DNA from: Candidatus Desulfofervidus auxilii
GTDB lineage: Bacteria; Desulfobacterota; Desulfofervidia; Desulfofervidales; Desulfofervidaceae
Reading direction: 5' to 3'
Assembly: GCF_001577525.1 (NCBI RefSeq)
Contig: NZ_CP013015.1
Location: forward strand, 1,495,667 to 1,559,666
Length of the DNA stretch: 64,000 nt
The notes beneath the pieces are model-generated. The model was not told the origin of the DNA. It worked only from the letters and a program-made list of their open reading frames with translations, and ran no database searches. Positions 2,321 to 19,499 of the stretch are shown here, one piece after another. Each line of letters opens with the position of its first letter. Position 1 is the first letter of the stretch. Both the position numbers and the translations under genes were made by a program.

Positions 2321-3610
2321 CTAAAATATGCGGGCAAAAATTTTATCTATATGACGCAAGCAATACTTTAAATCAAAAATTTTTTCTATTTCTGCTGGGG
2401 TGAGATAAACCTTTATTTCTTTATGAGATAAGACTTGGGTCTTTAAGTCTTGTTCTCCCTGCCAAACTCTCATGGCACAATCCTGTATCATTTCATAAGC
2501 CTTTTGTCTAGGCAGGCCTTTTTTGACTAAGGCCAATAACAAACCCTGGGAAAAAATAAGACCCTTAGTTAAATAGATATTTTTTAGCATCCTTTCCGGA
2601 TAGACTTCCATATTGGCCAAGATTTTTTTAAGACGATGTAACATAAAATCACTTAATATGGTGCTATCTGGCATAATCACCCTTTCTACCGAGGAATGGC
2701 TGATGTCTCTTTCGTGCCACAAGGCTATGTTTTCTAAGGCCGCTATAGCATTGGTGCGAACCAGTCTAGCCAGACCACATAGATTTTCACATTGAATGGG
2801 GTTTCGCTTATGGGGCATGGCTGAAGAACCTTTTTGACCTTTAGTAAAAGGCTCTTCTACCTCCAATACTTCAGTGCGTTGCAAATGCCTTATTTCTAAA
2901 GCAATTTTCTCTATAGTTCCAGCCAAAATAGCTAAGGCAGTAAAGTAATGGGCATATCTATCCCTTTGGATAATTTGATTAGTAATAGGAGCTGGTTTCA
3001 GCCCTAATTTAGGGCAAACATATTCTTCTATTTCTGGTTCTAAATGGGCAAATGTTCCCACTGCCCCAGAAATTTTTCCATAACTTATATCTTCTTTCGC
3101 CTGTTGTAACCGTTTTTTATTTCGCCTCATTTCTTCATACCAAAGGACCAGCTTTAGACCAAAGGTGATGGGTTCAGCATGGACCCCGTGAGAACGACCA
3201 ATCATTGGTGTATCTTTATAGGTAAATGCCTGTTCTCTTAAAATAGACATAACTTCTTCTACATCTTCCAAAATAATTTCCATTGCCTCTTTTAATAAGA
3301 CGGCATTAGCGGTATCTAAAATATCAGAAGAGGTCAGACCTAAATGTAAATATCTTCCTTCTGGTCCAATATTTTCTTCAACATTGGAAATAAAGGCAAT
3401 TACATCATGTTTCACCTGGGTTTCAATCTCTGCTATCCTCTCCACAGAAAAACTAGCCTTTTCCTTTATCTTAGCTAAGGCTTCTTTGGGGATAACTCCC
3501 TTTTCTGCCCAGGCCTCACAAACTAAAATCTCTATTTCTAACCATTTTTGGTATTTATTTTTTAGTGACCAAAGTTTCGCCATTTCTGGGCGAGTGTAGC
3601 GAGAAATCAT
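2321..3610 (-). CDS. purB: Adenylosuccinate lyase
   Basis: 429 residues, normal for the bacterial short form. It cleaves SAICAR to AICAR and adenylosuccinate to AMP in purine synthesis; the active form is a tetramer. The fumarase/aspartase signature GSSAMPHKRNP is near residues 260-270, the catalytic-His region GRSHGVHAEP near 138-147, and TSSDILDTANA near 92-103. The gene begins two bases after the SAM hydroxide adenosyltransferase gene stops, so the two are probably cotranscribed. Confidence 0.97.
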   Translation of the reverse strand: MISRYTRPEMAKLWSLKNKYQKWLEIEILVCEAWAEKGVIPKEALAKIKEKASFSVERIAEIETQVKHDVIAFISNVEENIGPEGRYLHLGLTSSDILDTANAVLLKEAMEIILEDVEEVMSILREQAFTYKDTPMIGRSHGVHAEPITFGLKLVLWYEEMRRNKKRLQQAKEDISYGKISGAVGTFAHLEPEIEEYVCPKLGLKPAPITNQIIQRDRYAHYFTALAILAGTIEKIALEIRHLQRTEVLEVEEPFTKGQKGSSAMPHKRNPIQCENLCGLARLVRTNAIAALENIALWHERDISHSSVERVIMPDSTILSDFMLHRLKKILANMEVYPERMLKNIYLTKGLIFSQGLLLALVKKGLPRQKAYEMIQDCAMRVWQGEQDLKTQVLSHKEIKVYLTPAEIEKIFDLKYCLRHIDKIFARIF

Positions 3611-3612
3611 TT

Positions 3613-4401
3613 TTATTTAGCCTCCTTTTTTATTTCTATTTTTTCTCCTATATTGGCTTTTAATGTCTCTTTAGCACTACCCATAGACTGGGCAATTTCT
3701 AAGTGTTCACTACTACCCCAAATAGCTAAAATTTCTTTAGGTGGGACAGCAAGGTAATGCGAGGCAATAGTTTTTAAAACCACATTTTTTATTTTAATAG
3801 AAAAACCGTAATTTTTTACAAATTCTTGAAATTTTTGTCTAGAAATATTGCTGATCAGATTCCCAAAATGGTCAATATAAATTACTTCTCCTTTTAAAAC
3901 ATAGTCTTTTACTTTGGGTAAAGGCCATTCTAGGCGTTGAAAATCATAAATCTTTTTGCCCATTTCTTCACACCGTTTACCTAAAGAGAGATAACCAGCT
4001 ATAGGTGCAAAAACATCTCGGCCGTGAAAGGTGAAACTTATTTTAGGTAAAAAATATTTTGGATTATTCAAATGGAAGACCTCTACTGGTTCTGTTTGGT
4101 AAATTAATTCTAAAACTCCATTATCTGGGGCAATAAAGAAATAGCTTGGTGTTTTTACTAACAGGGGGCGACGCTCACTGCCCACCCCCGGATCTACTAC
4201 GGCTACATGGATAGTACCTTTTGGGAAAAAGCTATAGGCAGTTTTTAATAAAAAGCTAGCCTGTTTGATAGATTGAGGTCTAATTTTATGTGTTAAATCC
4301 ACAATCTGCACATGGGGATTGATGTTTAAAATTACCCCTTTCATTATTCCTACATAGGTATCCTCCAGGCCAAAATCAGTTATAAGGGTGATGATAGACA
4401 T
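3613..4401 (-). CDS. SAM hydroxide adenosyltransferase (DUF62 family)
   Basis: 262 residues, the usual DUF62 length. The family hydrolyses S-adenosylmethionine to adenosine and methionine and is related to the fluorinases and chlorinases. Conserved blocks seen are ITDFGLEDTYVGIMKG at the N-terminus, VVDPGVGSERRPL and APDNGVL in the first domain, GRDVFAP, and IDHFGNLISNI at the start of the C-terminal beta domain. There is no sign of the fluorinase-specific insert. The start overlaps the stop region of the preceding small membrane gene without a gap, which suggests an operon with purB. Confidence 0.93.
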   Translation of the reverse strand: MSIITLITDFGLEDTYVGIMKGVILNINPHVQIVDLTHKIRPQSIKQASFLLKTAYSFFPKGTIHVAVVDPGVGSERRPLLVKTPSYFFIAPDNGVLELIYQTEPVEVFHLNNPKYFLPKISFTFHGRDVFAPIAGYLSLGKRCEEMGKKIYDFQRLEWPLPKVKDYVLKGEVIYIDHFGNLISNISRQKFQEFVKNYGFSIKIKNVVLKTIASHYLAVPPKEILAIWGSSEHLEIAQSMGSAKETLKANIGEKIEIKKEAK

Positions 4402-4402
4402 C

Positions 4403-4579
4403 TTATTTTAAGCGCCGGACCCTTAAGGCTTCAGCACCATAAGCTGTAACAAGAAGGAAGGCACTGAGAATAAACCACATAATATCACTTTCCCCTAAAA
4501 AGCGAAAAAAATGCATGAGCAATTTTGCTCCTACAATACTAGTCACCAACCGAATAAAAAATTTGATATACCAAGGCAT
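4403..4579 (-). CDS. Small membrane protein (58 residues)
   Basis: An ATG-initiated frame encodes 58 residues starting MPWYIKFFIRLVTSIVGAKL and ending RVRRLK. It contains a hydrophobic segment GESDIMWFILSAFLLVTAYGAE flanked by basic residues, consistent with one or two membrane helices and a positive C-terminal tail inside the cell. It fills the gap between mvhD and the SAM hydroxide adenosyltransferase gene with almost no non-coding space. The function is unknown. The small size means chance cannot be excluded, but the fit between neighbours favours a real gene. Confidence 0.55.
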   Translation of the reverse strand: MPWYIKFFIRLVTSIVGAKLLMHFFRFLGESDIMWFILSAFLLVTAYGAEALRVRRLK

Positions 4580-4597
4580 CAAAATTGATTAGTAGTT

Positions 4598-5014
4598 TTA
4601 CATCTGGCGGTAAGGACTTGGGCCTAGTTCTTTCAATTGTTGAGTCATTTCAGTTACCACTTTAGCGAACTTTTCTGCTTCTGCTGCTGAAATCCATTCT
4701 AAACGAAACCTTTCTGGTTCTAGTCCGTAGTCTTCTAACATTAACTGAATGGCCTCTGCCCTATCCTGTGCTCTTTTATTACCTTCCAGGTAATGACATT
4801 CGCCCAAGTGTCAGCCCGCCACCAGAACCCCATCTGCCCCTTTGGTCAAGGCTTCAATGACCAAATTGGGGTGGACCATGCCTGAACACATTACCCGAAT
4901 AATCCTGATACTGGGTGGATATTGTATCCTAGAAGTCCCTGCTAAATCTGCCCCAGCATAAGCACACCAGTTACATAAAAAACCAATGATAATCGGCTCA
5001 AATTCCTCAGCCAT
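4598..5014 (-). CDS. mvhD: MvhD-type iron-sulfur subunit, selenoprotein (UGA at 4813..4811 read as Sec)
   Basis: One gene that ordinary ORF calling would split at an in-frame TGA. Read through, it gives about 138 residues. The N-terminal part has [23 protein letters not shown] and GADGVLVAG. The UGA falls at the first cysteine of the family motif C-H-x-G-(D/E)-C-H-Y and is followed by [11 protein letters not shown]. MvhD carries a [2Fe-2S] cluster and passes electrons between a hydrogenase or dehydrogenase and HdrA; Sec at this position is known in VhuD-type proteins. ATG at 5014 is preferred because GGGAGG sits 9 bases upstream; ATG 5023 touches that site. No hdrA is adjacent, but one starts at 63533. 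Confidence 0.92.
4778..4813 (-). promoter_or_regulatory. Bacterial SECIS hairpin following the Sec UGA
   Basis: Directly downstream of UGA (4813..4811) and inside the coding sequence, ATTACC and GGTAAT form a perfect six-base-pair stem closed by the five-base loop TGGAA. The loop starts 22 bases after the UGA and has G at its second position. Both properties match the bacterial SECIS rule (G among the first two loop bases, loop about 16-37 bases after UGA). This hairpin would recruit SelB with Sec-tRNA. Confidence 0.85.
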
Positions 5015-5078
5015 AACTGACATCCTCCCTTAGCATGTGAAATAGCATTTTCTTTATGACATAAACTAACCCCTTTCG

Positions 5079-5390
5079 TCAAGGTTTTCTCTGTAAAATA
5101 GTTAAAATATCCTTTAATTCTCTCTTTATTTCTCTTAAAACAGACTGTTGTTTTAAACGTTTTATCAGTTGTTTTTTCGCTCCTTGAACAGTGAATCCTT
5201 CTTCATAAAGTAATCTTTTTATTTCTAAAACTATTTCTATATCTTTGGACTTATATAGCCGATGAGAAGAAAAACGATAAGGGCGAATTTCTTTAAACTC
5301 CTTTTCCCAATATCGCAATACATAGGGTTCAACACCTACTATTTGACTTACCTCACTAATTTTAAAATACTTTTTATTTTTCTCTGCCAT
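5079..5390 (-). CDS. MerR-family transcriptional regulator (short)
   Basis: 103 residues. The N-terminal winged helix-turn-helix reads YFKISEVSQIVGVEPYVLRYWEKEF, then R-P-Y-R-F-S-S-H-R-L-Y, the second MerR helix (IEIVLEIKRLLYEEGFTVQGAKKQL) and a Lys/Arg-rich tail. It has no effector-binding domain and no Cys metal site, so it resembles the short MerR-like proteins found near infrequent house-keeping operons. It is divergent from the acetyl-CoA carboxylase operon (118 bases between starts) and could regulate it, which is inference from position only. Confidence 0.85.
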   Translation of the reverse strand: MAEKNKKYFKISEVSQIVGVEPYVLRYWEKEFKEIRPYRFSSHRLYKSKDIEIVLEIKRLLYEEGFTVQGAKKQLIKRLKQQSVLREIKRELKDILTILQRKP

Positions 5391-5436
5391 AATTTTTTCC
5401 TACCCAATTTAAATCAATTAGTCAAATCTTTTCAAC

Positions 5437-5465
5437 TTGACGTTCATCACTACTCAGGCTATCTT
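5437..5465 (+). promoter_or_regulatory. Promoter of the acetyl-CoA carboxylase operon
   Basis: TTGACG (5437-5442), a 17-base spacer and TATCTT (5460-5465) form a sigma70-type promoter 44 bases before accC. It lies in the divergent region shared with the MerR-type gene. Confidence 0.55.
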
Positions 5466-5508
5466 AAAAGACTATTTGGTTCTTCTGGAAGTTGGAGTAT
5501 AGAATAAA

Positions 5509-6915
5509 ATGGCAAGAGTGCTTATTGCTAATCGTGGGGAAATTGCTATCCGGATTATGAAGGCTTGTCAGGCCTTGAACTTGGATTTTGTTATAGTGTA
5601 TACTGAAGAAGATAAACACTCCTTGCATGTTAGGCTAGGATTGCAAGAAGGAGGGAAAGATAAAGTTTATCGGATTGCTAGTTATACTGATCCCAACGAA
5701 ATCTTAGAAATTGCTGATTATACTAAGTGTGACGCCATTCATCCTGGTTACGGCTTTTTGGCAGAAAATTATAGATTTGCTCGCCGCGTAGCCATTAGAC
5801 GACGTCCGTTAAAATTTATTGGTCCCCGCTGGGAGGTAATTAGAGAACTAGGAAATAAAATCAATACCAAAGCACTTGCTACTAAACTTAATATTCCTGT
5901 GATTCCTGGGTCTGAAAAGCCTATTTATAACGAAATCGAAGCAGAAAATATAGCCATTGAACTTTTCCATAAACAATGGGAAGAAGGGATCAAAAACCCA
6001 GCAATTCTAGTGAAGGCTTCTAGTGGTGGGGGAGGCATGGGAATTGAGGAAGTAAGACACCTAGAAGAATTAAGAAGTGTTTATCGCCGAGTAAAAAGAT
6101 ATGCTAAACGACAATTTGGAGATGAGTGGGTTCTTTTAGAAAAAAAGTTTCCTGTGTTCAATCATATTGAGGTGCAGCTGGTCTGTAGTCAACATGGAGA
6201 AAGAGTCCACTATAATACTAGAAATTGTAGTATCCAAAGCATATCTAGGCAAAAACGCATTGAAGTGGCACCTGCCTTTGACCCCAACTACTCCTATAAT
6301 TTTAATCCTGAGGAGATAGAAAAGAAAATTATTCATTATTCTTTGAAAATAGCAAATTATTTAGATTATGATAATGTGGGCACCTGGGAATGGATTGTTA
6401 CACCAGGTGGTGAAGTATATTTACTAGAAGTCAATCCCAGGATTCAGGTAGAAAGTGGTGTCTCGGGTCTAATTGCCCAAATAAAAAAACAACCCCAGGG
6501 AGTGGATTTAATTAAGGAGCAAATAAGGCTTGCTTTAGGAGAACGGTTGAAATACAAACAAAAACACTTAAGTTTTAATGGTGCCAGTATTGAATTTCGT
6601 CTAGTAGCGGAAGATACAAAACATGGTTTTAAACCTTGGACTGGAACTATTAATCACTTTCATTTACCCCAATATGAATGGTTACAAGTCCATACCCATG
6701 TGCCTCAAGACAGGTCATATTCTATTCCCACTGATTATGACCCAAATTTAGCCCTGGCCCTTATATGGGGAAAGGATATAGAAGAAGCCAAACAACGTGG
6801 GGAATGTTTTTTAAATGAACTAGAAATTGACGGAGAGAATAGTAAGGGAGAAAAAATCGTTACCAACATTGAATTTTTGAAAGAAAAATTAAGCCAAATT
6901 CAGAGATTTGTTTAA
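5509..6915 (+). CDS. accC: Biotin carboxylase subunit of acetyl-CoA carboxylase
   Basis: 468 residues, slightly longer than typical AccC (about 450). It carboxylates the biotin on BCCP with ATP and bicarbonate. Seen: RVLIANRGEIAIRI (residues 3-16), AIHPGYGFLAEN, the ATP-grasp glycine loop SSGGGGMGI (near 171-179), HIEVQ and the EVNPRIQVES core around 300. Variations such as GPRWEVIRELGNKI in place of the usual GDKxxxK stretch show that it is divergent. The C-terminus overlaps the next gene by one base (TAATG), so the subunits are translationally coupled. Confidence 0.93.
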   Translation: MARVLIANRGEIAIRIMKACQALNLDFVIVYTEEDKHSLHVRLGLQEGGKDKVYRIASYTDPNEILEIADYTKCDAIHPGYGFLAENYRFARRVAIRRRPLKFIGPRWEVIRELGNKINTKALATKLNIPVIPGSEKPIYNEIEAENIAIELFHKQWEEGIKNPAILVKASSGGGGMGIEEVRHLEELRSVYRRVKRYAKRQFGDEWVLLEKKFPVFNHIEVQLVCSQHGERVHYNTRNCSIQSISRQKRIEVAPAFDPNYSYNFNPEEIEKKIIHYSLKIANYLDYDNVGTWEWIVTPGGEVYLLEVNPRIQVESGVSGLIAQIKKQPQGVDLIKEQIRLALGERLKYKQKHLSFNGASIEFRLVAEDTKHGFKPWTGTINHFHLPQYEWLQVHTHVPQDRSYSIPTDYDPNLALALIWGKDIEEAKQRGECFLNELEIDGENSKGEKIVTNIEFLKEKLSQIQRFV

Positions 6916-9152
6916 TGCTAGTCTTAGAAAAAAAGCTAGATGTTTTAAAAAGGAGATTAATCTATCTATCTGATATTAAAGGAGAAATCTTTGGAGAGAG
7001 AATTCAAACTTTGGAGAATTGGCTAAATAATATTTCAGAACGCATTTATGAACTTTCTGAAGAAGAAGTAGCTGAGCAGTTGGAGAAAATTGCTACTCAG
7101 ATTTCTTTTTATGAGAAAGAGGCTGAGCAAAAACTTACTCCTCTAGATTATGTGCGTATTGTTCGTCACCCATTTCGGATGACCTTAAAGGATATTTTGG
7201 AAAATGTATATGATGATTATGTAGAATTAGGAGGAGAAGAAGAATATAATATTGACCCTGCTGTAATTGCTGCCCGTGCTACTATAACCCGTCGCATAGG
7301 AAAAAGGGTTTACACTCACCAGGTGATGGTTATTGGTCATGAAAAAGGGCATGGTGAAGAATTTAGAAATGGTGGAAGTGCAAAACCTTGGGGAAATGAA
7401 AAGGCTTTAAGATTCATGCAAGTAGCAGAAACAGAAGGTATTCCTATCCATACTTATATTTTTACTCCAGGTGCCTATCCCATAGAAGACTATCCTGGGG
7501 CAGCTCAACAGATTGCCCGCAATCTATATGCCATGGCGGGGTTAAGGGTACCCATTATCTCTTTTATCTCTGAGGGAGGTTCAGGGGGGGCAGAGGCCAT
7601 TGGTTTAGCCGACCTACGGTTAATGTTTTCACATGGTTATTATTCTGTAATTTCACCTGAAGGTGCGGCTGCCATAGAAGGTAAAGTAAAAGAAGGGGAG
7701 AAAGTTCCTCTTGATTTAATCCATTTTTGTGCTCAACAACTCAAGATTACAGCCATAGAAAATCTTAAATTAGGTACCATTGACAGAATTATCCAGGAGC
7801 CTCCTTTAGGAGCAAGAAGAGATGATTATGAGTTTTTTAATCTTCTAAAGCAAGAAATAATTAGGGCCACAGACGAAGTTTATCTTTCAGTAAAAAGTTT
7901 AAGTAGATTAAGGGCACGTCAGCTTAAAAAAAATGGATTAAAGGATACCACCAATATTTATGTGCATTGGGAGCTTGATAGTAAAGAGATTGAGAGGCTT
8001 TTACAAAAACGCACCCTGAAATATAAAAGTTTAACTAAAGATTTTTATGCTGATCTCCGCAGTTTTTGGCGAAAAAACATGGATAAAATGGAGCTAAAGT
8101 GGTTAAGATTGAAAACCTTTCTATTTTTTAACATCTTAAAACGCCCCATAAAACGCTTACAGCACTTTATAGGAGATGTCAAAGCAGAACTACAGGTAAT
8201 TTCAAATTATGTAATAGCTCCTTTTTTAAGATTTAAGGAAAAAATTTTACCAAAGAAGAAAAGAATGATATCTTTAATCTCCGAAACTCCTGCCAAAGAA
8301 GAGGACAACTATTGGAGTGAGATTTATGTCAGTCCTCTAGCCAATGTGGATAAAACCGTGAGCTGTCCTAATGCTGAAAAATATGGTTGTTATGATATCT
8401 GGGTGCCTGATTTATATGGAGAGTTATGCGGTATTTGTCCTAATTGTGGTCACCATTTTCCTTTAGAATATCAATGGTATCTGAATTGCCTGTTTGATAA
8501 AAATTCAGTAAAGGAATTTTATAAGGAAATAGCCTCTATAAATCCTATCAATTATCATGGTTTTGATGAAAAATTAGAAAAAACTAGGGAAAAAACAGGG
8601 CGTTATAGTGCGCTTATCTCATTTGATGCAAAGGTAATGGGTATTTCTTTAGTAGTAGTTATGCTTTATAGCGATTTTAGAAATGGCACAGTAGGAGCAG
8701 CCGAAGGAGAAAAATTTATATTGGCATGTGAGAGGGCCAAATTATTACGCCGTCCTTTACTTGCTTATGTTCATGGAACTGCTGGCATCCGGATCCATGA
8801 AGGTACAGTTGGGGTAGTCCAAATGCCAAAATGTACCATAGCGGTGAGGGAATATATTAAAGCTGGAGGACTTTATATTGTGGTTTATGATAACAATTCC
8901 TATGCTGGTCCGGTAGCCAGTTTTTTAGGCTGTGCACCCTATCAATTTGCTATTCGTTCTTCTCGGATTGGCTTTGCTGGTCCTAGAGTGATTCGTGAAA
9001 CTACCAATCAAGAAATCCCACCAGATTATCATGCTGCTAAGAATGCCTTAAAACGTGGTCACATCCAAGGCATCTGGGATAGAAGAGAATTTAGAAAAAA
9101 TTTGTATATGGCCTTACTTACTATGGGAGGAAAACACCTTTATTACCGTTAA
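6915..9152 (+). CDS. accA/accD: Fused acetyl-CoA carboxylase carboxyltransferase (AccA-like then AccD-like)
   Basis: 745 residues joining two subunits usually made separately. Residues 1-330 resemble AccA: a coiled helical start, then RHPFRMTLKDILENVYDDYVELGG and the crotonase-fold core (SEGGSGGAEAIGLADL, SPEGAAAI). Residues about 330-450 are a basic helical linker. Residues 480-510 hold Cys pairs (CPNAEKYGC, CGICPNCGHHF) matching the AccD zinc ribbon, followed by the AccD crotonase half (GRYSALISFDAKVMG, HGTAGIRIHEG). The order alpha-beta is opposite to AccD-AccA fusions. The product transfers carboxyl from biotin to acetyl-CoA. Confidence 0.88.
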   Translation: MLVLEKKLDVLKRRLIYLSDIKGEIFGERIQTLENWLNNISERIYELSEEEVAEQLEKIATQISFYEKEAEQKLTPLDYVRIVRHPFRMTLKDILENVYDDYVELGGEEEYNIDPAVIAARATITRRIGKRVYTHQVMVIGHEKGHGEEFRNGGSAKPWGNEKALRFMQVAETEGIPIHTYIFTPGAYPIEDYPGAAQQIARNLYAMAGLRVPIISFISEGGSGGAEAIGLADLRLMFSHGYYSVISPEGAAAIEGKVKEGEKVPLDLIHFCAQQLKITAIENLKLGTIDRIIQEPPLGARRDDYEFFNLLKQEIIRATDEVYLSVKSLSRLRARQLKKNGLKDTTNIYVHWELDSKEIERLLQKRTLKYKSLTKDFYADLRSFWRKNMDKMELKWLRLKTFLFFNILKRPIKRLQHFIGDVKAELQVISNYVIAPFLRFKEKILPKKKRMISLISETPAKEEDNYWSEIYVSPLANVDKTVSCPNAEKYGCYDIWVPDLYGELCGICPNCGHHFPLEYQWYLNCLFDKNSVKEFYKEIASINPINYHGFDEKLEKTREKTGRYSALISFDAKVMGISLVVVMLYSDFRNGTVGAAEGEKFILACERAKLLRRPLLAYVHGTAGIRIHEGTVGVVQMPKCTIAVREYIKAGGLYIVVYDNNSYAGPVASFLGCAPYQFAIRSSRIGFAGPRVIRETTNQEIPPDYHAAKNALKRGHIQGIWDRREFRKNLYMALLTMGGKHLYYR

Positions 9153-9154
9153 AA

Positions 9155-9805
9155 ATGGAAAATATAGACAAAATTATTGCTGAATATAAGCAAACTCCTT
9201 TTGAGATATATGATATTTTTACCCCACACACAGGTATAGTCTCACTTATGGTTAAAAAGGGAGAAAAAGTTAAAGGAATAACGAGAGAAGGGTCGGAAAA
9301 AAAGGGAACTTTAATCTATACTATCTTGCGACAAGGCAATTTAAAAAACATTTATGCCCCAATTGATGGGGAAGTTGTAGAGATACTAGAAAAAGTGGAT
9401 AGGCAGTTTGTTGAGGCCAAAACCAAAATTATGTCTATCAAACACACCCTTAGTAAAGAAGAGGTGGTCAATAAAGCCTTGGAGAGATTTTTATATATCT
9501 TTAAGGCTCCTGAAACGGCTAGGTATCACTTCACTCAGGAACTAAATAAAAAAATTGAGCAAAAAGGCCTTCAGGGAGTGGTTATCAATCCTGGAGACGA
9601 AATTTTAATTATGTCTAGAATGAAAAGAGAGATTCCCCTCACTTATGAGGAAGAACCTGGAATTATTTATGCTGTTTATTTTAAATCCAATGTTACTATT
9701 ATGCAGGGAATGCCTCTTTTGGGAATTTGTCCACCAGATAAGGTAGAGTTTATATCTAAATTAGTAAAAAAAATCCAATTAGAATGGGAGAAAGATAGGA
9801 CTTGA
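9155..9805 (+). CDS. accB: BCCP-like protein with an unusual biotin site (SRMKR)
   Basis: 216 residues. The C-terminal part fits the biotinyl fold: NPGDEILIMSRMKREIPL, then EPGIIYAVYFKSNVTIMQG and LLGI, with K157 where biotin is normally attached. The usual AMKM is replaced by SRMKR, keeping the Met-Lys pair. The N-terminal half (TPHTGIVSLMVKKGEKVKG... YAPIDGEVVEILEKV) looks like a second biotinyl/lipoyl-type hammerhead without a lysine motif. It follows the fused carboxyltransferase by two bases and precedes a biotin ligase gene, which strongly supports a carrier role. Direct biotinylation is inferred. Confidence 0.75.
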   Translation: MENIDKIIAEYKQTPFEIYDIFTPHTGIVSLMVKKGEKVKGITREGSEKKGTLIYTILRQGNLKNIYAPIDGEVVEILEKVDRQFVEAKTKIMSIKHTLSKEEVVNKALERFLYIFKAPETARYHFTQELNKKIEQKGLQGVVINPGDEILIMSRMKREIPLTYEEEPGIIYAVYFKSNVTIMQGMPLLGICPPDKVEFISKLVKKIQLEWEKDRT

Positions 9806-9948
9806 TAAATGGTGGAAGGCGGGACGTGGGTTTTAATTTCGTGGAAAAACCAAAAATTTGTCATTAAATAAGCAAAAATTGTCAACATTGTTTAACATTT
9901 TTTTAAAAACCCACCTTTTAAAATGGATTTAATGTGGCATAAAATTTG

Positions 9949-9971
9949 CAGTTACTAAAAACTGCCAAGTC
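9949..9971 (+). promoter_or_regulatory. Short inverted repeat before birA
   Basis: GCAGTT and AACTGC form an inverted repeat around a short AT loop, ten bases before the birA start, in a 175-base spacer separating birA from accB. It could be an operator or a small hairpin. No match to a known BirA operator is seen. Confidence 0.25.
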
Positions 9972-9980
9972 TATTAAAAT

Positions 9981-10880
9981 ATGGAAGGTTTAATTCGGGA
10001 TAGGGAAAGGGAAATAATCCTAAAAAATATGGTGCAGAAACTGAAAAAAGAGGAGTTTGAAAAAAGATATGCAAAGGAGAAGGAAGCAGAAAGAATTTTG
10101 CGTCGAGGTGAGATGATTGGTGCCAATCTCTGGTGTTACCATTCTGTTACTCGAACTATGGAAGTAGCCAAAAAGTATATTGAAAACTGTTATACTTTAA
10201 GACAAACACCTTATTCTGGCACAGTATTTATTGCCCAAACAGTAAACCAGGCCCAAGGAAGGTATAATAGAAAATGGTATGCTCTTCCAGGAGGATTATG
10301 GTTTAGCTTTATTCTCTATCCTGAAGTAGAATCTCCATATATTCACCTTTATCCACTTTCTTTGGGTATAGCCTGTTGTGAGGCCTTACGGGAAATAGGG
10401 ATTAATGTTTGTATTAAATGGGTCAATGACCTTATATTTAACAGACACAAAGTAGGAGGAATTTTGAGTGAAACATATATTTCTTCTAGAAAAGAAACAT
10501 ACCTTATTTTTGGTGTTGGAATCAATGTTAATAACAGTTTCCCATCCACATTGGATATTCCTGCTATCTCCTTGAAAAAAATTACAGGAAAGGCGTTAAA
10601 TATAGATTTACTTTTTTCCTTGATATTGATAAAATTAATTTGGTATGTTGGATTAGTTCATGAAGCAGAACTGAAAAAAGAAACGCAGGAAATTATTGAG
10701 ATGTGGCTTAAATATACCAATATTTTAGGTCAAAAGATGTATTATGCTGAGGATTTGAAAATAGACAAAAAAAGAGAAGTAGAAATATTAGGACTAGACC
10801 CCTTTGGAGGGTTGATTGTTCGTTTTTGTGATACAGAAAGAGTGGAGACACTATATAGTGGTGAGCTAACTTACATCTAA
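9981..10880 (+). CDS. birA: Biotin-protein ligase (no DNA-binding domain)
   Basis: 299 residues. It activates biotin with ATP and attaches it to the BCCP lysine. The class II-like ligase core is seen: GTVFIAQTVNQAQGRYNRKW (the biotinyl-AMP loop, residues 74-93), LPGGLWFSFILYP, KWVNDLIFNRHKVGGILSE and FGVGINVNN, with a C-terminal SH3-like part (VEILGLDPFGGLIV). Instead of the repressor HTH there is a charged helical N-terminus of about 50 residues rich in Lys, Arg and Glu. The ligase sits next to the unusual carrier protein, so it may be tuned to the SRMKR site. Confidence 0.9.
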   Translation: MEGLIRDREREIILKNMVQKLKKEEFEKRYAKEKEAERILRRGEMIGANLWCYHSVTRTMEVAKKYIENCYTLRQTPYSGTVFIAQTVNQAQGRYNRKWYALPGGLWFSFILYPEVESPYIHLYPLSLGIACCEALREIGINVCIKWVNDLIFNRHKVGGILSETYISSRKETYLIFGVGINVNNSFPSTLDIPAISLKKITGKALNIDLLFSLILIKLIWYVGLVHEAELKKETQEIIEMWLKYTNILGQKMYYAEDLKIDKKREVEILGLDPFGGLIVRFCDTERVETLYSGELTYI

Positions 10881-10889
10881 GGGGGAAAA

Positions 10890-11972
10890 ATGGCAAAGAT
10901 AGACAGTTTTTTTAAATTGATGCATGAGAACAATGCTTCGGATTTGCATCTTTTAGCTGGTTTCCAACCCATGGTTCGCATCCATGGAGAACTTCAAAAA
11001 GTGAAATATAAAGTTCTAGAAGATAGTGAATTAAGGGGAATACTTTATGAAATTATCACTGAGCCACAAATAAAGTTTTTTGAGGAAAAAGGAGATTTGG
11101 ATTTTGCTTATGAAGTGCCTAACTTGGCTCGTTATCGGGCAAACTATTTTATGCATAAAGATGGAATAGGAGCAGCCTTTCGTGAAATTCCTGAGCAAAT
11201 TATGACTATAGATGAATTACGGTTGCCTCAAGTTTTAAAAAGTTTCGCCTTACTTCCTAAAGGGTTTGTCTTAGTGACAGGACCCACAGGAAGTGGTAAA
11301 TCTACTACCTTGGCAGCTATTATTGATTATGCCAACGAAAGGAGAAAAAGCAGGATTATTACCATTGAAGACCCCATTGAATTTGTCCACCAAAATAAAA
11401 ATTGTATTATCTCTCACAGAGAAGTAGGAACGCACACCAAATCTTTTGCTGCTGCTCTCCGCAGCGCTTTAAGAGAAGACCCTGACATCATTTTGGTAGG
11501 AGAAATAAGGGATTTAGAAACTGCAAGGTTGGCCATGGAAGCAGCCGCTACAGGACACTTGGTATTTAGCACCCTTCATACCAGTGGAGCAACAAAAACT
11601 GTGGACCGTCTTATAGAAATGTTCCCCACGGATGAACAAGAGTTTATCCGTTCCCTTTTGGCAGACGTCATTCGAGGTATTATTTCTCAGACTTTATTTA
11701 AACGCATAGACAGACCGGGAAGGATTGCTGCTTTGGAAATAATGGTAGCTACTTATGCTGTGAGAAATCTCATCCGGGAGAACAAGACCCATCAATTATC
11801 TTCTCTTATTCAAACTGGCAAAAAATATGGCATGCAGACTTTAGATGATGCTATTTTAGAGTTTTTAAGCAAAGGGTTTATAGATCCTGAAGATGCCTAT
11901 TTAAACGCCATAGATAAAGCAAAATTTAAACCCTTTTTGAAACGCATACCTAAAGATTTTACGGAGGTATAA
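10890..11972 (+). CDS. pilT: Type IV pilus retraction ATPase PilT
   Basis: 360 residues, typical PilT size. It powers pilus retraction (twitching motility) from the inner-membrane base as a hexamer. The N-terminal PAS-like part has ASDLHLLAG. Walker A is GPTGSGKST (131-139), the Asp box is IITIEDPIEFVH, Walker B is REDPDIILVGEIRD, and the His box is TGHLVFSTLHTS. The C-terminus has the AIRNLI-like helix (YAVRNLIRE). An AGGGGG-type site precedes ATG. It is followed after one base by a second PilT-like gene. Confidence 0.95.
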   Translation: MAKIDSFFKLMHENNASDLHLLAGFQPMVRIHGELQKVKYKVLEDSELRGILYEIITEPQIKFFEEKGDLDFAYEVPNLARYRANYFMHKDGIGAAFREIPEQIMTIDELRLPQVLKSFALLPKGFVLVTGPTGSGKSTTLAAIIDYANERRKSRIITIEDPIEFVHQNKNCIISHREVGTHTKSFAAALRSALREDPDIILVGEIRDLETARLAMEAAATGHLVFSTLHTSGATKTVDRLIEMFPTDEQEFIRSLLADVIRGIISQTLFKRIDRPGRIAALEIMVATYAVRNLIRENKTHQLSSLIQTGKKYGMQTLDDAILEFLSKGFIDPEDAYLNAIDKAKFKPFLKRIPKDFTEV

Positions 11973-16923: not shown

Positions 16924-18177
16924 ATGCAATTAAACTCACGTATTGCCAGAAGAATTATAGAAACGGTAGGTGCTTATGGCACTCCTCCAGAATATGGTTT
17001 TCAATTTTTCACTGCTGGATTAGATGAGTATTTACGGTGTATTCATGAAGAATATCTAAAAACATATATTAAAGAAGAAGGTGGCTCAGTAGTAAAGATT
17101 GTCATTGGTGCCTATGGAGGGGGAAAAACCCATTTTCTCTATAGCATTCGGGAACTGGCTTGGCAGGAAAATTTTGTAGTGAGTTATGTAGCTTTAAGTC
17201 CAGAAGAAAGCCCTTTTCACCGTCTAGAAGCAGTTTATAGGACTATTGTCAATAACCTTACTTATCCCCTCCAGCCTGAAGAGTTACTTAAGGGAGTGGA
17301 AAAAGGCATTGAGGCCTTTTTAATCACTTGGTATGAAAAGCAAATGGATGTTTTTAAAAATATAGGTTTAAAAGGGGAGGTATTAGAAAAGGAAATTGAA
17401 CAATATTTAGAATCTGTTCAGAGAAATATTGAAAACATTAATTTCGCTAAGGCTGTAGCTACTGCCTTTTTTGCTCTTCATGATGAGGATGAAAAGACTT
17501 TTAAACATGTTTTGCAATGGCTCAAAGTAGAAGGTTATGATAAAGGTATCTACCGTCCTCTGGGAATTTTATCTCCTATTGATAGAAGTAATGCCTTTTC
17601 TATATTACGTTCTTTAGTCCAATGGGTGCGCAATATTGGTTATAGTGGTTTAGTAATCTTATTTGATGAGGCAGAGCAAATTCCTAGTCTCAGCACTCGT
17701 CAACGGGAACTTACCCTCTCAAATTTAAGAGAACTCATTGATGCTTGTATGTATACTTCCTTTAGACATGTAATGATTTTTTATGCCTTACCTGATGAAC
17801 GTTTTTTTGAAGGACCTTCCCATATCTATGAGGCATTAAAACAAAGAATTTCTTCTGTATTTGATTTTTTTAATCCCTCAGGAGTGAAAATTAAATTAGA
17901 AAATACTAAAGGAGACCCCCTCGCCTTATTAGAGGAAATTGGGTATAAATTGAAGTATATCTTTGAAACTGCTTATGGAGTGCGTTTTCCTTCCCAGATA
18001 GAAAATGTAATTAAGATTGTAGCTCAAGAGGCCTATGAACGTCGGTTTGGAGATATTGGTTATATTAGATTGTTCGTGCAAGGAATAATTAAGGTTTTTC
18101 ACCTCTTACGAAAAAATCCTTTACTAGTCAATAAGACAAGTGAAATCTGTCAAATATTAGAAGAAGGTAGTGGATGA
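16924..18177 (+). CDS. DUF2791 (BrxD-like) P-loop ATPase, first of a pair
   Basis: 417 residues. Residues 1-50 (NSRIARRIIETVGAYGTPPEYGFQFFTAGLDEYL) match the start of DUF2791 proteins. Walker A is IGAYGGGKTHFL (61-72), Walker B LVILFDEAEQIPS (about 240-252), with an ALSPEESPFHRL arm and a winged-helix-like C-terminus. The family includes BrxD of type 3 BREX phage defence and related AAA-type ATPases. The next gene overlaps by four bases and encodes a second family member. No BREX methylase, PglZ or helicase is nearby, so the role is unknown. Confidence 0.8.
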   Translation: MQLNSRIARRIIETVGAYGTPPEYGFQFFTAGLDEYLRCIHEEYLKTYIKEEGGSVVKIVIGAYGGGKTHFLYSIRELAWQENFVVSYVALSPEESPFHRLEAVYRTIVNNLTYPLQPEELLKGVEKGIEAFLITWYEKQMDVFKNIGLKGEVLEKEIEQYLESVQRNIENINFAKAVATAFFALHDEDEKTFKHVLQWLKVEGYDKGIYRPLGILSPIDRSNAFSILRSLVQWVRNIGYSGLVILFDEAEQIPSLSTRQRELTLSNLRELIDACMYTSFRHVMIFYALPDERFFEGPSHIYEALKQRISSVFDFFNPSGVKIKLENTKGDPLALLEEIGYKLKYIFETAYGVRFPSQIENVIKIVAQEAYERRFGDIGYIRLFVQGIIKVFHLLRKNPLLVNKTSEICQILEEGSG

Positions 18178-19499
18178 AAGGTATAAGGGTTAAACATTTT
18201 ACCTTAGGCGAAGGGAGAATCATAGATACTCGCTACCATGGTTATGAATGCCTAGTGCATTTTATCTCAGGTCTCACTCGATGGGTCAAGAGACGCTATC
18301 TTGTATTTTTAGAACCACCTAAAAGGATAGAAAAAGAAAAACCTCCTCTTCCTATTTCTTTCCATTGGCCAAAATTAATAAAAGGGGGTCGGGAAGTAAT
18401 AGAGGCCTTTAGAGCAGGTATTGTGCCTGGGAACTGGATAAAAAGTTGGACTGTAGGTAGGGCTAAAGAGTTGGCTCAAATAAAAACTTGGCTCCATGAC
18501 CAAACTTCAGGTGCCATAATCATTAAAGGAGAATATGGTGCAGGAAAAACACATCTCATTGAATATCTTTATCATCAGGCACAAGAATTGAATTATGCGG
18601 TAGCTAGAGTAAGTATAGAACCTTTGAGTGCACACCTTGCCTTTCCTAAACGAGTTTACCGTGAATTAGTGCAAACATTCCGTGTGCCTCAAGGAGAAAG
18701 GTTTCTCAATTTCCGAGAGACTCTTAGTATTTTAGCTCAAAAAAAGGCACTCAAAGATCACTTTATCTTAGGTCCGTTTTTTAATATCTTGAGGAGAAAA
18801 GAAGTTACTACTCCTATGTGGCAATGGATAGAAGGTTTGGAAAGCACATTTAATGAATTTGGCAGTTTATATGATCATACCACCGCAGCCAACATTTATA
18901 GCTATATACTTTCAGGTATAAGCCGGGCCTTGGTGGAATACCTGGATACCGCTGGTCTGGTGTTGCTTTTTGATGAAACTGAGAGCACTGGTATTTATCG
19001 TTATAGTTATGAATGGCAGCGGGGAATGAATTTTTTACGGGGGCTAATTTTGGTAGCTAACGATGAACCAGATTTATTAGAAGAAAGGATTGTTAAAAGA
19101 GAATACTGTTATCAAGGAGAAATCACAAGCCTGGTTTATTCTGGTCATCGTAAACTCCCCTATATTTATCAATTACCTACTTACTTAAAGGTAGCCTTTG
19201 CTGTCACCCCTGATTTTTCTATCCAAGAAATGATGGATGAATACAATATTTATATACTTGAGCTAGAACCATTAGAGCCTCAATATCTAGAACATTTCTT
19301 TTATCGCTTTGTAGAACTTTATCGTAAGGTTTACGGCCTCAGACTAACTGCTAGGGAAAAGAGGGAAATTTTTACCTTTATTAAAGGATATGCCCCTATT
19401 TCTACCCGTATTTTTATCAAGGCCATGGTAGAATGCCTGGATTTTAAGAGATTTTACCCTGCAGGAGAGGTAAAGACCCTGGCTGGAGGATTGTCTTGA
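18174..19499 (+). CDS. DUF2791-type P-loop ATPase with N-terminal Tudor/SH3-like domain, second of a pair
   Basis: 441 residues. The first 48 (VKHFTLGEGRIIDTRYHGYECLVHF...WVKRRYLVFLEP) resemble the small SH3/Tudor-like domains at the ends of UvrD/Rep helicases and CarD-like proteins that touch RNA polymerase or nucleic acid. After a proline-rich linker comes a DUF2791-like ATPase: Walker A GEYGAGKTH (119-127), Walker B VLLFDETEST (about 260-270). It is translationally coupled to the first ATPase. Two unequal ATPases, one with a nucleic-acid or polymerase docking domain, suggest a heteromeric machine. Confidence 0.75.
   Translation: MKGIRVKHFTLGEGRIIDTRYHGYECLVHFISGLTRWVKRRYLVFLEPPKRIEKEKPPLPISFHWPKLIKGGREVIEAFRAGIVPGNWIKSWTVGRAKELAQIKTWLHDQTSGAIIIKGEYGAGKTHLIEYLYHQAQELNYAVARVSIEPLSAHLAFPKRVYRELVQTFRVPQGERFLNFRETLSILAQKKALKDHFILGPFFNILRRKEVTTPMWQWIEGLESTFNEFGSLYDHTTAANIYSYILSGISRALVEYLDTAGLVLLFDETESTGIYRYSYEWQRGMNFLRGLILVANDEPDLLEERIVKREYCYQGEITSLVYSGHRKLPYIYQLPTYLKVAFAVTPDFSIQEMMDEYNIYILELEPLEPQYLEHFFYRFVELYRKVYGLRLTAREKREIFTFIKGYAPISTRIFIKAMVECLDFKRFYPAGEVKTLAGGLS

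What the first reader, a model, noticed from the sequence alone, without database searches (positions are those of the whole stretch)
16924..19499. Orphan pair of DUF2791/BrxD-like ATPases, one with a Tudor/SH3-like domain
Two adjacent, overlapping genes encode unequal members of the DUF2791 P-loop family best known from type 3 BREX phage defence. None of the other BREX parts (PglX methylase, PglZ, BrxC, helicase) is present. The second carries an N-terminal domain like those that dock repair helicases on RNA polymerase. The pair could be a small DNA-associated machine or a reduced defence system not described before.
Basis: partly seen in the sequence, partly recalled or inferred. Interest (0 to 1): 0.65.

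Follow-up and report, generated by a model that had tools for sequence, protein, structure and literature searches.

The report
Two-ATPase helicase-loader system, scattered parts
The two adjacent ATPase genes are not orphans: they are half of an apparently undescribed four-part DNA machine (small scaffold protein, two loader-type ATPases, one helicase) that is normally one operon in many bacteria and archaea, but in this bacterium's lineage is split over three chromosomal sites.

Summary
Two genes overlapping by 4 bp (A, 16924-18177; B, 18174-19499) encode full PF10923-family ATPases, and B begins with a real Tudor domain closest to the RNA-polymerase-docking domain of UvrD/PcrA. The "orphan pair" reading does not hold. 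In about 80 loci from many bacterial and archaeal phyla, the same pair usually sits inside a tight operon U-A-B-H: U, about 280 aa, no known family; A; B; H, an Lhr/BrxHI-type helicase. The window's genome carries single U and H orthologues too, 102 kb and 322 kb away. All four proteins have congruent divergence and the same nearest relative outside the lineage. There is no PglZ, so no BREX. A and B each form their own fully supported clade, apart from BREX-2 BrxD and Shango SngB. Best mechanism: A and B form an ORC/Cdc6-like loader that places H on DNA, with the Tudor domain docking it. This is inferred, not shown. Purpose is open: relatives on plasmids, next to BREX-2 and fused to nuclease/helicase domains suggest defence, while stable inheritance and housekeeping neighbours in Desulfofervidia suggest a chromosomal role. 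I found no published description in the open-access library available.

The parts
16924..18177 (+). Gene A: 417-aa PF10923 AAA+ ATPase (BrxD/SngB-like), first ATPase of the four-part system
   Evidence: monophyletic A clade
17107..17130 (+). A Walker A (GAYGGGKT, residues 62-69)
   Evidence: G62, Y64, G65, G67, K68, T69 98-100% conserved in 80 A proteins
17650..17676 (+). A Walker B (LVILFDEAE, D248/E249)
   Evidence: D248, E249, E251 100% conserved
17728..17730 (+). A Arg269, candidate arginine finger
   Evidence: 100% conserved in 80 A proteins, no counterpart in B; role inferred
17845..17847 (+). A Arg308, candidate arginine finger
   Evidence: 100% conserved in 80 A proteins, no counterpart in B; role inferred
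18174..19499 (+). Gene B: 441-aa Tudor + AAA+ ATPase, second ATPase of the system
   Evidence: monophyletic B clade
18186..18308 (+). B N-terminal Tudor domain (residues 5-45), UvrD/PcrA type
   Evidence: profile vs PDB; five-strand barrel in model; found in 64 of 78 B ORFs
18528..18551 (+). B Walker A (GEYGAGKT, residues 119-126)
   Evidence: G119, Y121, G122, G124, K125 100% conserved
18957..18983 (+). B Walker B (LVLLFDETE, D267/E268)
   Evidence: D267, E268, E270 100% conserved

Best explanation
A and B are two subunits of a four-component DNA machine, U-A-B-H. Shown: the four-gene operon, the families of A, B and H, the dispersed U and H orthologues in this genome, and the Tudor domain. 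Inferred: A and B co-assemble into an ORC/Cdc6-like AAA+ oligomer, with A supplying the arginine finger and B being the asymmetric subunit. The oligomer loads or activates the Lhr-type helicase H on DNA, in the way proposed for BrxD and BrxHI of BREX-2. B's Tudor domain docks the assembly on a protein partner, possibly RNA polymerase in bacteria. U, a long helical hairpin plus an alpha/beta domain, is a scaffold or sensor. My leading view of the purpose is recognition and processing of foreign or abnormal DNA (a defence-type ATPase-helicase module related to Shango and BREX-2), which in Desulfofervidia has become a stably inherited chromosomal function.
For: Operon: U lies directly upstream of A in 64 of 75 loci with room, B directly downstream in 68 of 72, median gaps -4, 0 and -4 bp. 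Window genome: U at G000:C1:1410911-1411741, E=2.9e-62; H at 1188987-1190543, E=1.3e-232. Co-divergence: Mantel r 0.81-0.88 for all six pairs, and L091 is the nearest relative outside the lineage for all four window proteins. A and B clades each 100/100, separate from BrxD and SngB, with matching subclades. B fold: closest solved structures include ORC/Cdc6, TnsC, RuvB, DnaA and RFC, loaders or initiators. H: closest solved is Lhr, E=1.7e-51; PADLOC BrxHI 1.2e-70 and SngC 1.6e-68. A has invariant R269/R308 after Walker B, B has none. Shango's ATPase, helicase and TerB protein together give phage protection (PMC10250203); BrxD and BrxHI form a tight dyad with proposed helicase loading (PMC12839542). 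Type II U-A-B-H occurs on plasmids, once directly after BREX-2 pglZ-brxD-helicase. A type III H carries a weak Cas4-like stretch and an SF1 helicase. Bacterial and archaeal members interleave in the A tree.
Against: No biochemistry or phage assay exists. H was not found in two complete Desulfofervidia genomes (G003, G004) that keep U, A and B, so H is not always needed there. U sits in a conserved housekeeping context in 6 of 6 relatives, and few of 113 flanking proteins near type I operons hit defence families (no control run), both unlike a defence-island gene. The Tudor domain also occurs in archaeal B proteins, whose RNA polymerase differs, and 14 of 78 B ORFs lack a Tudor hit. Distance correlations partly reflect shared species history.
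Confidence: 0.55

Rival explanations
1. Housekeeping DNA-repair or conflict-resolution machine: the A-B loader, tethered by the Tudor domain to transcribing RNA polymerase or a repair protein, places the Lhr-type helicase at stalled forks, R-loops or lesions.
For: The Tudor domain is of the UvrD/PcrA type, and PcrA residues needed for RNAP binding (H681, W684, K712, L714; PMC5397179) correspond in B to His8 (26 of 26), an aromatic or leucine at 11, Arg36 and a hydrophobic at 38 (correspondence read from the alignment and from sequence knowledge). Lhr is the nearest solved relative of H. U, and A-B where the genome is complete enough, are retained across Desulfofervidia. H follows a family B DNA polymerase by 3 bp and precedes DUF123 in the window genome.
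Against: The system is patchy: 9 of 247 genomes in one archaeal phylum and 6 of 297 genomes in the window's phylum with strong full-length B matches. Bacterial and archaeal members mix in the tree. Related forms are on plasmids and beside BREX-2.
Confidence: 0.33
2. The pair works without U and H, as a stand-alone A-B ATPase; the other two are relatives that merely happen to be in the genome.
For: In Desulfofervidia A-B are separated from U and H, and H was not found in G003 and G004.
Against: Outside Desulfofervidia A-B are nearly always in one operon with U and usually H; the dispersed U and H show the same divergence pattern and the same nearest outside relative as A and B.
Confidence: 0.07
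3. Decayed remnant of a BREX locus.
For: PF10923 membership; one plasmid has BREX-2 genes directly next to a related operon.
Against: A and B are intact with all motifs conserved, lie outside the BrxD clade, PglZ is absent, and the pair is retained in relatives.
Confidence: 0.03

Closest known systems
BREX type 2 BrxD-BrxHI dyad
   Same: PF10923 ORC/Cdc6-like ATPase next to a Ski2/Lhr-type helicase; helicase loading has been proposed (PMC12839542)
   Different: One ATPase rather than two, no U, no Tudor on BrxD, described within a PglW/PglX/PglY/PglZ system; BrxD forms a separate clade
Shango (SngA-SngB-SngC)
   Same: One PF10923 ATPase plus a related DEAD/DEAH helicase; a small compact operon without a methylase
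   Different: TerB protein instead of U, one ATPase, no Tudor domain detected; SngB is a separate clade
UvrD/PcrA C-terminal Tudor domain
   Same: Closest solved relative of B's N-terminal domain; the tested RNAP-binding positions are largely matched
   Different: N-terminal on an AAA+ ATPase rather than C-terminal on an SF1 helicase; partner unknown
BREX type 3 BrxHII
   Same: Carries an N-terminal Tudor domain (PMC12839542)
   Different: There the Tudor is on a Swi2/Snf2 helicase, not on the ATPase
Lhr helicase core
   Same: Closest solved structure for H
   Different: H is about 525 aa and encoded with loader-type ATPases

Membership tests
PF10923 (BrxC_BrxD / DUF2791) ATPase | Match above the curated cut-off | tested here: met
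   A 182 bits and B 66.7 bits against 22.2
BREX-2 BrxD | NCBIfam BrxD equivalog cut-off (350 bits) | tested here: not met
   A 146.6, B 63.1 bits
BREX-2 BrxD | Groups with BrxD proteins in a tree | tested here: not met
   A, B and BrxD are separate fully supported groups
BREX (any type) | PglZ in the genome | tested here: not met
   No PF08665 match in G000
BREX (any type) | PglX methylase and BrxC/PglY in the genome | tested here: inconclusive
   Only two PF10923 genes in the genome, both accounted for; PglX not searched genome-wide
Shango | SngB-like ATPase with SngC-like helicase in one operon | tested here: not met
   Helicase is 322 kb away; the ATPase is outside the SngB clade
Shango | TerB-domain protein SngA next to the ATPase | tested here: inconclusive
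   The genes flanking A-B (glycosyltransferase, TPR protein) are not TerB and U has no Pfam family, but TerB was not searched genome-wide
U-A-B-H system (defined here) | U, A, B and H orthologues in one genome | tested here: met
U-A-B-H system (defined here) | The four genes form one operon | tested here: not met
   Dispersed over three sites in the window genome; contiguous elsewhere
UvrD/PcrA-type Tudor domain | Profile match and Tudor barrel | tested here: met
   (E=2.4e-4)
UvrD/PcrA-type Tudor domain | Binds RNA polymerase | not testable with these tools
   Key residues largely matched
ORC/Cdc6-like AAA+ helicase loader | Fold, Walker motifs, arginine finger | tested here: met
   Fold of B, Walker motifs of A and B; the finger is identified by conservation only, in A
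ORC/Cdc6-like AAA+ helicase loader | Loads a helicase on DNA | not testable with these tools
   -

The most novel reading that the evidence does not exclude
U-A-B-H is an undescribed, cross-domain class of DNA machine in which a hetero-oligomeric two-ATPase loader, docked by a Tudor domain on RNA polymerase or a similar partner, loads an Lhr-type helicase. It would be a family that includes both mobile phage/plasmid-defence versions (plasmid-borne, BREX-linked, nuclease-fused) and domesticated chromosomal versions such as the one in this lineage.
Probability: 0.4. Interest if true: 0.8.

Novelty: new variant of a known kind. Interest (0 to 1): 0.62.

Why it matters
It turns two genes annotated as stray BREX parts into a defined four-subunit system found across bacteria and archaea, with an unnamed conserved subunit (U) and an unusual pairing of a Tudor domain with a loader-type ATPase. 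It gives a minimal setting in which to test what BrxD/SngB-type ATPases do with their helicases, which is unresolved for BREX-2 and Shango. Because the parts are separable and single-copy in Desulfofervidia, it may also show how a defence-type module becomes a fixed cellular function.

Tried and rejected
Single-sequence scan of genome contigs with B found nothing; the family alignment of A worked. Pfam on B alone gives no Tudor hit; only the family profile against PDB sequences and the model show it. A fifth conserved gene was sought by clustering all flanking genes in the 80 loci: none recurs across phyla. Fold search of U gave no meaningful match, best E=1.1. A profile search of A against PDB sequences found no relative. 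A PADLOC scan of flanking genes showed only a few OLD/Gabija-type and reverse-transcriptase hits; without a control it is weak. BREX remnant rejected on tree, PglZ absence and intact motifs. Paper searches for DUF2791, BrxD, SngB and related terms found nothing that describes the four-gene system; the BREX survey PMC12839542 and the Shango paper PMC10250203 are the closest. Subscription journals and preprints are not held, so absence of a description is not proven.

Full report
1. What is there. The two genes are real and intact. A (16924-18177) and B (18174-19499) overlap by four bases on the + strand. Both belong to PF10923, formerly DUF2791: A along its whole length (E=2e-53), B over the N-terminal part of the ATPase (E=2.4e-18). 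They are the only PF10923 genes in the genome (2.54 Mb, one contig), and the genome has no PglZ. The upstream glycosyltransferase is divergent and the downstream gene is a TPR membrane protein. Neither accompanies the pair in relatives.

2. The Tudor domain. Pfam misses it on single sequences, but the first ~50 residues of B are a conserved domain (invariant H8, G12, G14, R20, F30; W37 in 25 of 26). A profile of 26 such N-termini has the C-terminal Tudor domains of UvrD- and PcrA-type helicases as its first five PDB hits (7egs 2.4e-4, 6yi2, 7egt, 5dma, 9dqs). The AlphaFold2 model (mean pLDDT 90.7) shows five strands at residues 5-45, a disordered linker at 51-65 and then the ATPase. In PcrA, residues H681, W684, K712 and L714 are needed to bind RNA polymerase (PMC5397179). 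B has His in 26 of 26, Tyr/Leu/Phe in most, Arg in 15 of 26 (Arg in the window) and a hydrophobic residue at what I read as the corresponding positions. RNAP binding is thus plausible but untested, and the same domain occurs in archaeal members, where the partner must differ.

3. Not an orphan pair. In the window's family and order, A-B is found in every genome except the 81%-complete G002, but in different gene contexts. In a more distant relative (G009) the pair is followed by a helicase gene and preceded by a ~280-aa gene. A scan of bacterial and archaeal genomes with the A family returned 80 loci from many phyla, among them Nitrospinae, Poribacteria, Planctomycetes (Brocadia), Myxococcota, Caldatribacterium, Chloroflexi, Cloacimonadota, Acidobacteria, Gemmatimonadota, KSB1, WOR-3, ANME and other methane archaea, Brockarchaeota, Methanodesulfokora and Lokiarchaeota. 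Most show the order U-A-B-H: U directly upstream in 64 of 75 loci with room, B directly downstream in 68 of 72, H directly next in 42 of 60, with median gaps of -4, 0 and -4 bp. No fifth gene recurs across phyla.

4. The missing parts are in the same genome. A profile of U finds one strong copy in the window's genome at C1:1410911-1411741 (E=2.9e-62). A profile of H finds C1:1188987-1190543 (E=1.3e-232). U is present in all six Desulfofervidia genomes examined, always next to the hexulose-phosphate synthase/isomerase pair and, in most, followed by a ketopantoate-reductase-like gene and a phosphoribosyltransferase (gene names from sequence knowledge). H follows a family B DNA polymerase by 3 bp and precedes a DUF123 gene in the window genome. 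H was not found in G003 and G004, which keep U, A and B. For all four window proteins the nearest relative outside Desulfofervidia is the same locus, L091, and divergence of the four proteins is strongly correlated across 43 genomes (Mantel r 0.81-0.88; this does not remove shared species history).

5. Relation to known systems. In a tree of 71 proteins, A and B each form one fully supported group, apart from BREX-2 BrxD and from Shango SngB, and the subgroups of A and B match each other. A falls far below the NCBIfam BrxD cut-off. H matches BrxHI and SngC models about equally, and its closest solved structure is Lhr. U has no Pfam or PADLOC family and no clear structural match; the model of a close relative (pLDDT 94) is a long helical hairpin followed by an alpha/beta domain. 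So the system probably works on the same ATPase-helicase principle as BREX-2 and Shango but is a member of neither.

6. Variants. The same U-A-B-H order without a Tudor domain occurs with a ~700-aa H (G182, and the Desulfomonile and Aulosira plasmids; in Aulosira directly after BREX-2 pglZ-brxD-helicase) and with very large H proteins (1109-2034 aa). One of these, 1955 aa, carries a weak Cas4-like stretch and an SF1 helicase. U is recognisable in these operons by profile (E 1e-11 to 1e-23).

7. Mechanism. B's fold matches initiators and loaders: ORC/Cdc6, TnsC, RuvB, DnaA, RFC. Both ATPases keep intact Walker A and B motifs. A alone has invariant arginines (R269, R308) between Walker B and the lid, and B has none at 80% or more, which suggests a composite, asymmetric A-B assembly (inference). 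The most economical model is a two-ATPase loader for H with U as scaffold or sensor and the Tudor domain as a docking module.

8. Purpose. For defence: Shango is anti-phage by experiment (PMC10250203), BrxD-BrxHI belong to BREX-2 (PMC12839542), and relatives are on plasmids, next to BREX-2 and fused to nuclease/helicase domains; the system is patchy (9 of 247 genomes in one archaeal phylum) and bacterial and archaeal members interleave. For a housekeeping role: stable retention in Desulfofervidia, housekeeping neighbours, the UvrD-like Tudor domain, Lhr-like H, and few defence genes around type I operons (no control). I rank defence-type DNA processing slightly ahead, with a domesticated role in this lineage.

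Noticed in passing
L200 (Aulosira laxa plasmid3) 2557-11557: BREX-2 pglZ-brxD-helicase genes directly followed by a second, complete U-A-B-H operon on a conjugative plasmid.
   Followed up: partly
L073 3449-9316, L074 6503-12385, L075 11631-17735: Very large helicases (1955-2034 aa) in U-A-B-H operons; the first has a DEAD helicase, a weak Cas4-like stretch and an SF1 AAA_11/AAA_12 helicase in one chain.
   Followed up: partly
L083 3596-6672 and L085 4608-7696: A further variant: U-like gene, shortened A-like gene, B-like gene, then a 188-aa and a 650-750-aa unknown protein.
   Followed up: no
L137 8401-11001, L147 8304-11432, L150 8498-11557: B proteins of 866-1042 aa in methanogens and related archaea with long N-terminal extensions in place of a detectable Tudor domain.
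   Followed up: partly
G003, G004 (complete Desulfofervidia genomes): H was not found while U, A and B are kept; what replaces it is unknown.
   Followed up: partly
L077 7527-11977 (window genome, outside the window): Family B DNA polymerase, H helicase and DUF123 gene lie in one tight same-strand cluster; a fragment of H in G002 is also followed by a DUF123-like gene.
   Followed up: partly
L095 11432-15172, L129 5737-8835: SF1 helicases with a PLD or MTES_1575 nuclease domain adjacent to two U-A-B-H operons.
   Followed up: no
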